DNA of 64,000 bases, taken from assembly GCF_004339765.1 (NCBI RefSeq), contig NZ_SMGO01000002.1:966001-1030000 (forward strand). The letters run 5' to 3'. Shown here piece by piece: positions 44,150 through 48,706 of this stretch. This DNA is from Albibacterium bauzanense. GTDB taxonomy: Bacteria > Bacteroidota > Bacteroidia > Sphingobacteriales > Sphingobacteriaceae. The notes under the pieces were generated by a model. That model saw nothing but the letters and a program-made list of their open reading frames with translations. It made no database searches and was not told the origin of the DNA. The first letter of the stretch is position 1, and every line of letters starts with the position of its first letter. A program made the position numbers and the translations under genes.

Positions 44150-44365
44150 GTCCTGAATCGGAATGCAAAGATATGATTCAAATCTAATATCCGAAAATAT
44201 TTCTACTAAAATATTGAATTAATTTTTTAGTCTTCCAGAATGAATAACGGCTGTGCTTGGCATTCAGTTGATTAATGCTTTTCTTTATCGTAATTTTTCA
44301 GTGTAATTAAATCAGATTGAAATTCTTTGACACTATTCTTCACTTTTAATGTTATATTTAGGAGT

Positions 44366-45220
44366 ATGAAAATTTCCAGTTATCTGCAATTTAATGAAAA
44401 AGTTACGATAAAGCGTAAAACGGTTCGCGTCAGGGATATAAGTATTTCTTATTTACTTAAAGATAACCCTCAAGCAGAATCTACAATCATTTTTATTCAC
44501 GGTTTCCCATTTAATAAGAATATGTGGATTGGTCAGTTGGAGGCCTTACCATCTGAGGTTCGAGGGATTGCAATGGACGTTCGTGGTCATGGAAACACAA
44601 CAAGCGGGCATGGATTTTTTAATATTGATGTATTTGCGAAAGATTTAATCGCATTTATTGAAACTTTAAAGTTAGGCAAAGTTGTAGTCTGTGGGATTTC
44701 TATGGGCGGTTATATTGCTTTAAGGGCTTTTGAATTGAGATCTGATTTGTTTTCGGGCATTATTTTAAGTGATACCCATTCTTTTGCAGATACAGATGCA
44801 GGAAAGATTAAGCGATTTGCTACGATTGAGTCGGTATTAAAGCATGGAAAAAGAATTTACGCAATCGGGTTCGTAGCGAATATATTCTCTAAGAAATCTA
44901 TTGATGAGAAGCCTGAGATTGTAGATCTTATAAAAAGTTCTATTCGCAGAAATACGGAATCAAGCATATGTGCTACCTTATTAGCTTTGGCTTCAAGGAC
45001 AGATACGACAGCTGTTCTGAAGGATATATCTGTTCCCGTTTTGATACTTCGTGGGGAGGAGGATAGTATTGTTTCTATGGAGCAAGTGGAAAGTATGGAA
45101 GAATTAATACCAGATGTAAAGCATATCGAAATTCCAGATTGTGGACATCTACCTAATCTGGAGAATCCGGTACGCTTTAATGGAGAAATCAGAAACTTCT
45201 TAATAAGTAAAATTCTTTAG
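44366..45220 (+). CDS. Alpha/beta hydrolase
   Basis: The 284-residue protein has the alpha/beta-hydrolase fold: oxyanion-hole motif FIHGFPFNKNMW, the nucleophile elbow GISMGG, the acid in LILRGEEDSIV and the His in DCGHLPNLENP. The substrate is unknown; similar proteins are esterases or 3-oxoadipate enol-lactonase-like enzymes. There is no signal peptide. I start it at 44366 (MKISSYLQF), where a GGAG ribosome-binding sequence lies 2 bp upstream, rather than at the in-frame ATG 13 codons earlier. It is convergent with the TonB-dependent receptor gene. Confidence 0.9.
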   Translation: MKISSYLQFNEKVTIKRKTVRVRDISISYLLKDNPQAESTIIFIHGFPFNKNMWIGQLEALPSEVRGIAMDVRGHGNTTSGHGFFNIDVFAKDLIAFIETLKLGKVVVCGISMGGYIALRAFELRSDLFSGIILSDTHSFADTDAGKIKRFATIESVLKHGKRIYAIGFVANIFSKKSIDEKPEIVDLIKSSIRRNTESSICATLLALASRTDTTAVLKDISVPVLILRGEEDSIVSMEQVESMEELIPDVKHIEIPDCGHLPNLENPVRFNGEIRNFLISKIL

Positions 45221-45250: not shown

Positions 45251-47134
45251 TTATAATTGTTTCCAGCCATATTTTATACCTAAGCTGAACCAACGTGTAG
45301 GCATAGGCACTGCGCCTGCTTCTTTATATTCGGCATCGAACAGATTGGTTACGTTAGTGTATAGAAGGAGTTTTTTCACTTGGTAATTTATTCGGATATC
45401 TGCAATGCTATAAAGTTTGCCAAGTTCACGTTTTAATAATCGATTTTCTATTTGAAAGGTAAGGTTATTTATGGTATAATTAACTCCTGTAATAAATTGA
45501 TGTCTCAGAGATTCTAGAGCATATTTAGATTGGGTTCCCTTTAAAGTTTTAACTGTCGGATGTAAATAATTATAACTTACATGATAACCTAATGATTGTT
45601 TATTGCCTAAGTCAAAATTCTGACTTATTCTAGCGTGAATGCCTTGCATTTTGTTACTCTTAAGATTAATTGGAGAATAAGGTTGTGACGGGTCTTCTCT
45701 CATCCAATCAATAAAGTTGGTTATATTGCGGAAGAAATATCCGGTTTGAAAGTTCAAATTAGCCTTGTTATACTGGATATTTCCTTCGTAATTCCAAGCA
45801 TTTTCGGATTTAAGAAATTCATTTCCTACGTTTCCCGGAGCTTGGTTTAGGTATAAATCTGTAAAGGAAGGGATTCGCTGCCCAGAACCAATGCTAGTAG
45901 AAATTTTCCAATAATCATTGATAAGGTAGGCTAAATCTATACCCGGATATAGTTGCCATCCATAATTGGTATTGTAGTTGGCATAAAAACCAGCAATGCC
46001 TTTTATCTTCTTTCCCAAAGTGGTTTCTAACTCTGCGTATACCCCATGATTATCTTGATTGTGTTCTCCAATATTGGAGCTGTTGATTTTTTCCAAACGT
46101 GATTCTCCTCCAAAACCAAAGGTTCCTATTCTTGTTTCAAGAGTACTATTCAATTCGAGCATCAAGGCGTTGGTATAGTGTAAAGACCGTCCTTTACTTA
46201 AGTCGTCTTTAAAATACCGATAGTCATCTTCGCTATAACGGTCGCTGATTCTTGGAGATATTGTAAAGTTATTCCATTGATGTTTTGAGGAGAGACTGAA
46301 CATAGAAGATTCGACGAGTTCTTCTGAGTTGATGTCCCCTGGAGCTGCGTAAAAACCATTGGCTCCGAAATGGCTTCGAGCATAACCAGCCATTGCCTGA
46401 ATGCTGTTGTTAGCATCGAAATTATAATTGCCATTATAAAAGAGTCGTGTATTTTTGGATTTCGAGTTGTAACGCTGACCGTTGTAATTGCTTTGAGCAA
46501 TCGAAAAAAGATGACTTTGTTGTTCCGTTCCGAAATTTCCCGTAAACTCAGCGCTTCCGCCACCGTATATACCCGAACCGTCATTCTCCTCTTTATTCTT
46601 AAAAGAACTGCTGGTCTGTATATCCGCGATAATAGAGGAGTATTTTTCTCTTTTGGTTACGATATTAATGGCACCAGTAAGAGCATTGATTCCATAAACT
46701 CGAGCTGCAGCGCCTCTTAATACTTCAATATGATCTATGGCACTCAAAGGGATGGGGATATTCATCATATTATGGGCAGACTGTGAATCAATCATTTTTA
46801 CACCATTTATTAAAACCAAGGTTTGTTCGGATGTTCCTCCGTCAATAGAAATATCAGCCTGTGTTCCAAATGGGCCTCTCTGGCGAATATCCACTCCACT
46901 GACATAGGATAAAACTTCATTGATCGATTTTGCAGGAAACTGTTCGATCTGTTTCTGTGTAATGATCTGAATGTCCCGAGTTGTTTGACTAAAGGGAATT
47001 TGTATCCGATTTCCTTGAATGATAACTTCTTCCAATTCACTGCTTGAATTTTCTCGATTAGGGAATAAATCTTTCTGTTGTGCAAAGGCAGGTAAAGCTA
47101 TTATTACTCCCAAAATAACTATTATCTTTTTCAT
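45251..47134 (-). CDS. TonB-dependent outer-membrane receptor (BtuB-like)
   Basis: The 627-residue protein has a signal peptide of about 18 residues, a plug domain (IQGNRIQIPFSQTTRDIQII ... INEVLSYVSGVDIRQRG ... DISIDGGTSEQTLVLINGVKM ... IEVLRGAAARVYGINALTGAINIVT) and a 22-strand-type barrel ending WFSLGIKYGWKQL. The plug resembles vitamin B12 receptor BtuB and related small-ligand receptors. No carboxypeptidase-like or SusD partner is present, so it is not a SusC. Ligand is not shown by the sequence; no B12 riboswitch precedes it. It is divergent from a MocR-like regulator, its likely regulator, with an 84-bp gap. Confidence 0.88.
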   Translation of the reverse strand: MKKIIVILGVIIALPAFAQQKDLFPNRENSSSELEEVIIQGNRIQIPFSQTTRDIQIITQKQIEQFPAKSINEVLSYVSGVDIRQRGPFGTQADISIDGGTSEQTLVLINGVKMIDSQSAHNMMNIPIPLSAIDHIEVLRGAAARVYGINALTGAINIVTKREKYSSIIADIQTSSSFKNKEENDGSGIYGGGSAEFTGNFGTEQQSHLFSIAQSNYNGQRYNSKSKNTRLFYNGNYNFDANNSIQAMAGYARSHFGANGFYAAPGDINSEELVESSMFSLSSKHQWNNFTISPRISDRYSEDDYRYFKDDLSKGRSLHYTNALMLELNSTLETRIGTFGFGGESRLEKINSSNIGEHNQDNHGVYAELETTLGKKIKGIAGFYANYNTNYGWQLYPGIDLAYLINDYWKISTSIGSGQRIPSFTDLYLNQAPGNVGNEFLKSENAWNYEGNIQYNKANLNFQTGYFFRNITNFIDWMREDPSQPYSPINLKSNKMQGIHARISQNFDLGNKQSLGYHVSYNYLHPTVKTLKGTQSKYALESLRHQFITGVNYTINNLTFQIENRLLKRELGKLYSIADIRINYQVKKLLLYTNVTNLFDAEYKEAGAVPMPTRWFSLGIKYGWKQL

Positions 47135-47191
47135 ATTTGATATTATCCGATATATTTAAAAACTGCGGCGCAAAGATTAAAGTTTAAATGG

Positions 47192-47199
47192 TAACTTTG
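47192..47199 (+). promoter_or_regulatory. -7 element of the MocR-like gene
   Basis: TAACTTTG matches TAnnTTTG and lies 19 nt before the ATG. On the opposite strand a near match (TAATCTTTG, 47179-47171) faces the receptor gene, so the two promoters overlap back to back in the 84-bp gap. Confidence 0.5.
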
Positions 47200-47218
47200 A
47201 TAGTCCGAATTAATTATA

Positions 47219-48706
47219 ATGAGTAGTCCGGTTGGTATTAGTTTTCATTCCTTCATCAAAATAGATCGCCGCAAAGAGGATTCGGTCTATATGCAAATTG
47301 TTTATCAGTTTATCAATGCTGTAAAAAAAAACCTTTTAGAAGACGGCGACCAGCTTCCAGGAAGTAGAAAGATTGCAGAAGAATTGCAGGTTCACAGAAA
47401 AACAATTGTAGCTGCTTTGATGGAACTAGAGGGACAAGGGTGGGTAGATATTATTCCAAACATTGGCACTTTTGTAAAAAATCCCGATCTTTCTTCAATT
47501 AAGCCATTGAACGTCAGAGTTTTTAGACAGCCTCCCGAAAAGGCTCTATTTCAATTTAGAAGAGAATCAATTTTGGATATTCCTATATTGGAAATTCCAG
47601 AACGGTTGTGTTTTACTGATGGTACGCCAGATTATAGAATTATTGGAACCGAAGAATTAGTCCGTTTTTACGCATCGGTGTTGAAGAGAAAAAAGGGAAC
47701 CAGTGAATTGACGAATAATACTGATGGAAATTTGTTTTTTAGGGATCAATTGAGTTATTATCTGAATTTAACCAGGGGGTTTCATCTTTCCAGAAATTTT
47801 TTATTGCCCATAGCTGGTCGAGAACAAGTTTTTTCTATTTTATCGCGCTTATTGATAAACACAGGGGATGTCATATTGGTAGAAAGTTTGAGCTATTTTT
47901 TGCCAAATATGATCTTTAGTCAAGCAGGTGCAAAGTTGAAAATTGTCCCGGTAGATGAGGAAGGGATGGATATTGATTATATTCAGAAACAATTTAAAAT
48001 CGGTGAGATAAGGTGTGTTTATATAAACACCAAATGCCAATATCCCACAACGGTCAGCCTATCCGAAAAGCGAAAGACTCAATTGCTGAGTTTAGCAGAT
48101 CTTTACGATTTTATCGTGATTGAGGATGATGTCGATTTTGAATTTTCAATGGTAAAAGATAAGCGAGAATCTTTATTTAGGAAAGATGGAGGAAGTCGTG
48201 TAATCTATATCGGAGCTTTCGGAAGATTTCTGAATTCTAGCTTTCAAATGAATTTTTTGATTGCTTCAAAGGATCTGTTGGAAGAAGGAAAGAAATACCT
48301 AAATATCTATGGTAAACCTAATTTTATGCTGGAAAAAGCTCTGGGAGAAATTATTAGTCAGGGGGATATGTTCAGGTATCAACGGAAATCCCAAAAAGTA
48401 ATTGTCGAAAGAAAGGAGATGTTTGCTCAGTTGCTCAAGGGCTATTTTAAAAACCAAATTACTTTTCATGTGCCAGATTCTGGACTGGCCTTTTGGATCA
48501 GATTTAATAATCCTTTTTCATTGATTCGGTTACAAGAAAAAGCAAGAGAGGATGGGTTGGTAATTTCTAGTATTTGTCTCTATCAGAATCGAACAATAAC
48601 CGCTGCAAGGTTGAGCTTCGCCCATCTTAATCAACAAGATATGGAGGAAGCCGTCAGATTGCTTTACGAAGCTTATTGCAAGGTTCTAAGTTCTCCAACT
48701 ATGTAG
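47219..48706 (+). CDS. MocR-like (GntR + aminotransferase-fold) regulator with degenerate PLP site
   Basis: The 495-residue protein has an N-terminal GntR winged helix (YMQIVYQFINAVKKNLLEDGDQLPGSRKIAEELQVHRKTIVAALMELEGQGWVDIIPNIGTFV, residues ~24-86) and a C-terminal class I aminotransferase-like domain. The key positions differ from PLP-binding MocR proteins: the lysine in the usual GTFSKTL block is Arg (GAFGRFL, R336), the following LRLGY arginine is Gln (SFQMNFL), and the PSHQ(Y/F)PTG motif reads NTKCQYPTT. The acidic EDDVD (302-306) is kept. It likely senses a ligand without classic PLP aldimine chemistry and controls the divergent receptor. Confidence 0.85.
   Translation: MSSPVGISFHSFIKIDRRKEDSVYMQIVYQFINAVKKNLLEDGDQLPGSRKIAEELQVHRKTIVAALMELEGQGWVDIIPNIGTFVKNPDLSSIKPLNVRVFRQPPEKALFQFRRESILDIPILEIPERLCFTDGTPDYRIIGTEELVRFYASVLKRKKGTSELTNNTDGNLFFRDQLSYYLNLTRGFHLSRNFLLPIAGREQVFSILSRLLINTGDVILVESLSYFLPNMIFSQAGAKLKIVPVDEEGMDIDYIQKQFKIGEIRCVYINTKCQYPTTVSLSEKRKTQLLSLADLYDFIVIEDDVDFEFSMVKDKRESLFRKDGGSRVIYIGAFGRFLNSSFQMNFLIASKDLLEEGKKYLNIYGKPNFMLEKALGEIISQGDMFRYQRKSQKVIVERKEMFAQLLKGYFKNQITFHVPDSGLAFWIRFNNPFSLIRLQEKAREDGLVISSICLYQNRTITAARLSFAHLNQQDMEEAVRLLYEAYCKVLSSPTM

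What the first reader, a model, noticed from the sequence alone, without database searches (positions are those of the whole stretch)
47219..48706. MocR-like regulator lacking the PLP-binding lysine, divergent from a TonB receptor
The GTFSKTL lysine is R336, the LRLGY arginine is Gln, and PSHQYPTG is NTKCQYPTT, while EDDVD is kept. PLP binding as an internal aldimine is impossible without the lysine, so the aminotransferase domain probably senses another ligand. The 84-bp divergent gap makes the outer-membrane receptor its likely target, linking the sensed ligand to what the receptor imports.
Basis: partly seen in the sequence, partly recalled or inferred. Interest (0 to 1): 0.58.

Follow-up and report, generated by a model that had tools for sequence, protein, structure and literature searches.

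The report
Biotin switch missing its cofactor lysine
This looks like a bacterial gene switch for the vitamin biotin that has lost the lysine its relatives use to hold vitamin B6, and it appears to control a gate that brings biotin (or its precursor) through the outer membrane of a bacterium that cannot make biotin itself.

Summary
The 495-aa MocR-type protein has Arg336 exactly where GabR has PLP-lysine K312; the Y281 and R319 equivalents are Val305 and Gln343. It belongs to the family of BioL, the MocR repressor of biotin synthesis described in Elizabethkingia, whose lysine K340 is needed for repression (PMC12915131). Close orthologs in Sphingobacterium and Flavobacteriia stand divergent from either this TonB receptor or bioB; their lysine column is R/S/C/G, rarely K. 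A direct repeat, TAGTCCG-N16-TAGTCCGG, overlaps the regulator's start codon and lies 30 bp from the divergent promoter's CAAA box in 38 of 39 loci; the same repeat with 30-31 bp spacing stands before unlinked TonB receptors in four genomes whose regulator sits at bioB. The window's genome has no bioB, bioA or BioY, and its BirA has no DNA-binding domain. Best reading: a PLP-independent BioL variant that controls uptake of biotin or dethiobiotin through the TonB receptor. The regulon is well supported; the ligand (biotin/dethiobiotin in the former PLP pocket) is inferred. New variant of a known kind.

The parts
47219..48706 (+). BioL-family (MocR/GntR) regulator lacking the PLP lysine, 495 aa
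47366..47368 (+). codon of Arg50 in the winged HTH (R in 153 of 153 family proteins extracted; R50 of E. meningoseptica BioL is needed for repression, PMC12915131)
48131..48133 (+). codon of Val305, at GabR Tyr281
48224..48226 (+). codon of Arg336, at the PLP lysine (GabR K312, BioL K340)
48245..48247 (+). codon of Gln343, at GabR Arg319; Q in 39 of 39 of the window clade, R in 41 of 41 relatives divergent from bioE/bioF
45251..47134 (-). TonB-dependent receptor (627 aa), proposed importer of biotin or dethiobiotin; nearest solved structure BtuB
47135..47218 (.). 84-bp divergent intergenic region
47201..47207 (+). operator half-site 1, TAGTCCG
47224..47231 (+). operator half-site 2, TAGTCCGG, inside the first codons of the regulator; 23-bp period
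47192..47199 (+). TAACTTTG, fits the Bacteroidota -7 box TAnnTTTG (consensus recalled) of the regulator's promoter
47170..47174 (-). TTTGC (GCAAA on +), putative -7 element of the receptor promoter; its CAAA lies 30 bp from half-site 1

Best explanation
It is a BioL-family regulator that has given up the covalent PLP cofactor. A dimer binds TAGTCCG direct repeats (23-bp period) that overlap its own promoter and start codon and lie just upstream of the divergent receptor promoter. When biotin is plentiful it keeps both genes low; when biotin falls the receptor is raised and imports biotin or dethiobiotin. The former PLP pocket would read biotin status by binding biotin (or dethiobiotin) non-covalently. 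Shown by sequence: missing lysine, dismantled PLP site, shared operator and fixed geometry, biotin gene context, absence of bioB/bioA in this genome. Inferred: repression rather than activation (by analogy with BioL), the imported substrate, and the ligand.
For: R336 at K312 of GabR. Close relatives stand divergent from this receptor or from bioB, in most Sphingobacterium followed by bioA-bioF-bioG-bioC. bioB directly follows the receptor gene in six loci (L041, L051, L059; G346, G232, G261 by coordinates). The repeat is exact in 33 of 35 aligned loci, one mismatch in the other two; spacing to the divergent CAAA box is 30 bp in 38 of 39. In G220, G177 and G221 a second period-23 repeat stands before an unlinked receptor 46-49% identical to the window's, at a spot where relatives keep a lysine-bearing BioL; in G218 before another receptor (33%); spacing 30-31 bp in all four. 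G000: one exact operator match in the genome, this one; no bioB over cut-off, no bioA, no BioY, BirA 254 aa without HTH. K and S columns of the PLP site are invariant and Y nearly so in 41 bioE/bioF-linked relatives but variable in the window clade, while N270, Q274 and Q343 are invariant in its 36 closest members.
Against: No expression, binding or transport data. Lysine-bearing relatives also control TonB receptors (34 of 83) and many of their genomes lack bioB, so loss of the lysine is not tied to uptake or auxotrophy; the independent-pairs test of lysine against partner is not significant. At least four window-clade genomes do have bioA. The loose operator pattern occurs at about or below control rates, so only the exact period, flanks, place and spacing are telling. 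The receptor's best annotated match is vitamin B12 BtuB, far under cut-off. Two window-clade members carry K (L054, L056).
Confidence: 0.68

Rival explanations
1. It still works through PLP: PLP, or a PLP adduct with a biotin-pathway amine such as 8-amino-7-oxononanoate, binds non-covalently in the pocket, held by Asp303.
For: D303 is D in 37 of 39 of the window clade; two members have K; E. meningoseptica BioL is reported to sense this amine (PMC12915131, passage).
Against: Phosphate-binding Arg is Gln in 39 of 39 and the Ser and Tyr columns are variable; G000 has no bioA or bioB, though bioF could not be scored.
Confidence: 0.15
2. The domain senses nothing: it is a fixed repressor or activator, and regulation is by dose or other factors.
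For: For EnuR a passage of PMC8739950 speaks of a constitutive repressor in connection with its PLP lysine; K, S and Y columns are relaxed here.
Against: N270, Q274, Y226 and Q343 are invariant in 36 of 36 and the fold is predicted intact.
Confidence: 0.1
3. The receptor carries another nutrient (for example a cobamide) and the link with biotin genes is regulatory only or accidental.
For: Best matches are TonB-B12/BtuB (158 of 600 bits; PDB E 8.5e-21).
Against: Receptor-bioB gene pairs, shared operator in cis and in trans, and bioB-less genomes.
Confidence: 0.07

Closest known systems
BioL (MocR-family repressor of bioEFD and bioBA, Elizabethkingia/Chryseobacterium; PMC12915131)
   Same: Architecture, R50, biotin gene context, BirA without HTH; TAGTCCGG at the start codon is shared with the lysine-bearing relatives that stand divergent from a bioE-bioF-like pair (35-42% identical to the window protein).
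   Different: No lysine at K340 and most other PLP contacts lost; direct-repeat operator, where the paper used ~50-bp palindromic probes; target is a TonB receptor (or bioB); the paper's main text has no occurrence of 'TonB'.
GabR / PdxR (PLP-dependent MocR regulators)
   Same: Fold: Foldseek best hits are GabR 4n0b and, among other regulators, PdxR 7zpa; direct-repeat operator and overlap of own promoter recall GabR (recalled).
   Different: GabR K312, Y281, R319 are R336, V305, Q343; R430 falls on S451.
BtuB (TonB-dependent vitamin B12 receptor), for the divergent gene
   Same: Full-length match, plug plus barrel.
   Different: Far below the family cut-off; sits with biotin genes in relatives.

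Membership tests
MocR subfamily of GntR regulators | N-terminal GntR winged HTH plus fold-type I aminotransferase domain | tested here: met
MocR subfamily of GntR regulators | Active-site lysine for PLP (GabR K312; PMC6677901 says Asp279 and Lys312 are conserved across all its clusters) | tested here: not met
   R336
BioL | Arg50 in the HTH | tested here: met
BioL | Lysine K340 (K340A derepresses in E. meningoseptica) | tested here: not met
BioL | Linkage to biotin synthesis genes | tested here: met
   met in orthologs (bioB operon or receptor-bioB); in the window's own genome bioB and bioA were not found
BioL | ~50-bp palindromic operator | tested here: inconclusive
   a direct repeat of 23-bp period is what is conserved; the published BioL site was not seen
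BioL | Repression, and sensing of 8-amino-7-oxononanoate | not testable with these tools
   needs protein work
BtuB-type B12 receptor (divergent gene) | Score over the curated cut-off of TIGR01779 | tested here: not met
   158 of 599.7 bits

The most novel reading that the evidence does not exclude
A natural branch of the PLP-dependent regulators has abandoned PLP and senses biotin or dethiobiotin directly in the emptied cofactor pocket, has displaced the PLP-lysine BioL in some Sphingobacterium, and controls a TonB-dependent outer-membrane importer of biotin or dethiobiotin.
Probability: 0.35. Interest if true: 0.8.

Novelty: new variant of a known kind. Interest (0 to 1): 0.64.

Why it matters
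The PLP lysine is described as conserved in all MocR clusters (PMC6677901, passages) and is needed in BioL (PMC12915131), yet here a widespread branch lacks it, and in the wider family its column needs at least 9 changes of state on supported branches. That makes a clean natural experiment on how a cofactor-dependent sensor becomes a cofactor-free one, and it names a concrete candidate for how biotin or its precursor crosses the outer membrane of Bacteroidota.

Tried and rejected
bioF presence as a measure of 8-amino-7-oxononanoate synthesis: TIGR00858 gave matches in 80 of 80 and 69 of 69 genomes with none over the cut-off, because paralogs score like BioF; dropped. Correlation of lysine state with partner: 40 of 40 bioE-divergent and 1 of 1 bioF-divergent keep K, against 34 of 83 TonB and 3 of 20 bioB, but independent pairs are too few, so no claim. 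Lysine loss as a sign of auxotrophy: rejected, many K-bearing TonB-linked genomes also lack bioB. Arenibacter bioB loci elsewhere in the genome (L066-L068): no operator repeat found. Contexts of the other loose-pattern matches (for example second sites in G202, G204, G219) were not examined; only L190, L205-L208, L210 and L215-L218 were. The 2025 PNAS paper on BioL (PMC12704756) is not held, so the original operator and ligand data were not seen. Claims of novelty rest on searches of a library that lacks most subscription papers.

Full report
Check. The ORF 47219-48706 and the receptor 45251-47134 are as stated, 84 bp apart. The protein has a GntR domain and an aminotransferase I/II domain. 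In the phmmer alignment with GabR, R336 stands on K312, D303 on D279, V305 on Y281, A333 on T309, Q343 on R319 and S451 on R430. A model from 42 sequences (mean pLDDT 80.6, pTM 0.67) has GabR and PdxR as best Foldseek hits (E about 1e-30 to 1e-26), so the fold is predicted intact; VIA-align gives Z 34.6 to GabR 4mgr_D (rmsd 8.5 over 438 residues) and 33.7 to PdxR 7pq9 (rmsd 2.6 over 348).

Family. It is the only match of its kind in its genome (E up to 0.001). In genome contigs 33 loci were found, 32 of them 64-74% identical, in Sphingobacterium and Flavobacteriia such as Arenibacter, Aequorivita, Gelidibacter, Mesonia, Psychroflexus and Salinimicrobium; the 33rd, Apibacter muscae, is 37% identical. 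Gene clustering of their flanks shows the divergent neighbour to be either the window's type of receptor or a 360-aa protein that NCBIfam names BioB, over the cut-off; in most Sphingobacterium it is followed by BioA (over the cut-off), BioF (under it), BioG (Pfam) and BioC (under it) (one representative of each scanned). More distant relatives (30-45% identity) in Sphingobacteriaceae and in the family of Apibacter stand divergent from a receptor, from bioB, or from a ~207-aa protein followed by a BioF-like one.

Link with BioL. PMC12915131 (abstract, passages, section 2.2 and the first part of its reference list read) describes BioL, a MocR repressor of bioEFD and bioBA in Elizabethkingia and Chryseobacterium, with R50 in the HTH and PLP lysine K340; R50A and K340A both derepress (about 4-fold) and give auxotrophy; BioL is said to sense 8-amino-7-oxononanoate; BirA there has no DNA-binding domain. 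In my set R50 is present in 153 of 153 proteins and many lysine-bearing ones have K at residue 340. I call the ~207-aa neighbour BioE by its place before bioF, its length and its invariant Glu/His residues, one of them at or near the paper's E26; no Pfam or NCBIfam model names it, so this name is an inference.

Lysine column. Of 151 proteins in the tree, K is kept in 40 of 40 divergent from bioE and 1 of 1 from bioF, in 34 of 83 divergent from a receptor and 3 of 20 divergent from bioB; 7 of 7 with no assigned partner have K, four of these being the outgroup. The state changes at least 12 times on the best tree and at least 9 on starred branches (quick IQ-TREE, SH-aLRT only; several long branches). 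Independent pairs are too few for a test of lysine against partner (p = 1). In the window clade (39) the column is R 27, S 8, K 2, C 1, G 1; the Ser and Tyr columns are equally loose; Arg343 is Gln in 39 of 39. In 41 bioE/bioF-linked relatives Ser, Lys and Arg are invariant and Tyr is 35 of 41. By entropy, K336, S333 and Y305 sit at the 74th, 83rd and 91st percentile in the 36 closest, against the 18th, 18th and 44th in the bioE group, while N270, Q274 and Q343 are invariant in the 36. I read this as loss of PLP binding with a new set of pocket residues under constraint; that last step is inference, since the 36 are on average 71% identical.

Operator. TAGTCCG at 47201 and again at 47224 forms a direct repeat. 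It is exact in 33 of 35 aligned close orthologs (L002, a copy of L033, among them), with one mismatch in L003 and L061; the second half lies inside the first codons, which would explain the constant N-terminus. TAGTCCGG at the start codon occurs in 136 of 151 family genes. The distance from the repeat to the CAAA of the divergent gene is 30 bp in 38 of 39 window-clade loci and 29 in one. In 26 genomes the loose pattern TAGTCC-N15-19-TAGTCC is on the whole no more frequent than its reversed control, and G000 has exactly one, this one. But G220, G177 and G221, whose regulator sits at bioB, have a further exact 23-bp repeat before an unlinked receptor (46-49% identical to the window's), in a gene order (receptor, 313-317-aa gene, glycosyltransferase-like gene) in which L004, L008 and L009 carry a lysine-bearing BioL between the first two; no regulator remnant is found there by tblastn. 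G218 has one before another receptor (33%). Spacing is 30-31 bp in all four. So the receptor promoter, not only the regulator's own, is the likely target, and in these Sphingobacterium the lysine-less regulator seems to have taken over from a lost lysine-bearing one (inference).

Biotin status. Of 28 window-clade genomes tested, 14 have bioB over the cut-off and 14, G000 among them, have none. Of the 14 with bioB, 10 have no bioA at E 1e-120, which fits organisms that finish dethiobiotin made by others. G000 also lacks bioA and BioY; its BirA ORF is 254 aa and starts with the ligase domain. Six loci have bioB directly behind the receptor, and G206 has a bioB remnant with three stops at that place.

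Mechanism. Most likely: repressor of itself and of the receptor, released at low biotin. The half-sites overlap the regulator's own promoter region and start codon, and lie about where the -33 region of the receptor promoter should be (promoter consensus recalled); repression is taken from BioL, and activation, as in GabR, is not excluded. The ligand is unknown; biotin or dethiobiotin is my choice because 14 of 28 genomes have no bioB and 10 more have no bioA, so an intermediate made before BioA is an unlikely signal there.

What is known. PMC6677901 (passages) states that Asp279 and Lys312 are conserved across all MocR clusters; PMC8739950 (passages) reports strict conservation of the lysine in 278 EnuR proteins; PMC5320631 (passages; the main text has no 'biotin' or 'TonB') surveyed MocR regulons. 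PMC6522883, PMC5317091 and PMC10008586 (passages) gave nothing on this question. Searches for a TonB-dependent biotin transporter found no described one in the listings of this library.

Noticed in passing
L045 (G206:C18:30116-30442): A bioB-like remnant with three stop codons lies directly behind the receptor gene in Arenibacter sp. 6A1, suggesting an older receptor-bioB operon; an intact bioB is elsewhere in the genome.
   Followed up: partly
L215, L216, L217 around 5001: Operator left before an unlinked receptor where relatives keep a lysine-bearing BioL: apparent loss of that gene and takeover by the lysine-less regulator.
   Followed up: yes
L173, L175-L178, L180, L182-L184: A separate lysine-less group (H, N or D at the lysine column), also divergent from a receptor, with Arg343 kept and K at the Ser333 column.
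   Followed up: partly
L054, L056 (Aequorivita): Two members nested in the lysine-less clade have K at the column but still Q at 343: reversion or chance.
   Followed up: no
L057: The receptor gene is split into two ORFs in this Aequorivita MAG (frame break or assembly error).
   Followed up: no
window 44327-45220: Alpha/beta hydrolase gene converging on the receptor gene; no homologous ORF clustered with it in the other loci.
   Followed up: no
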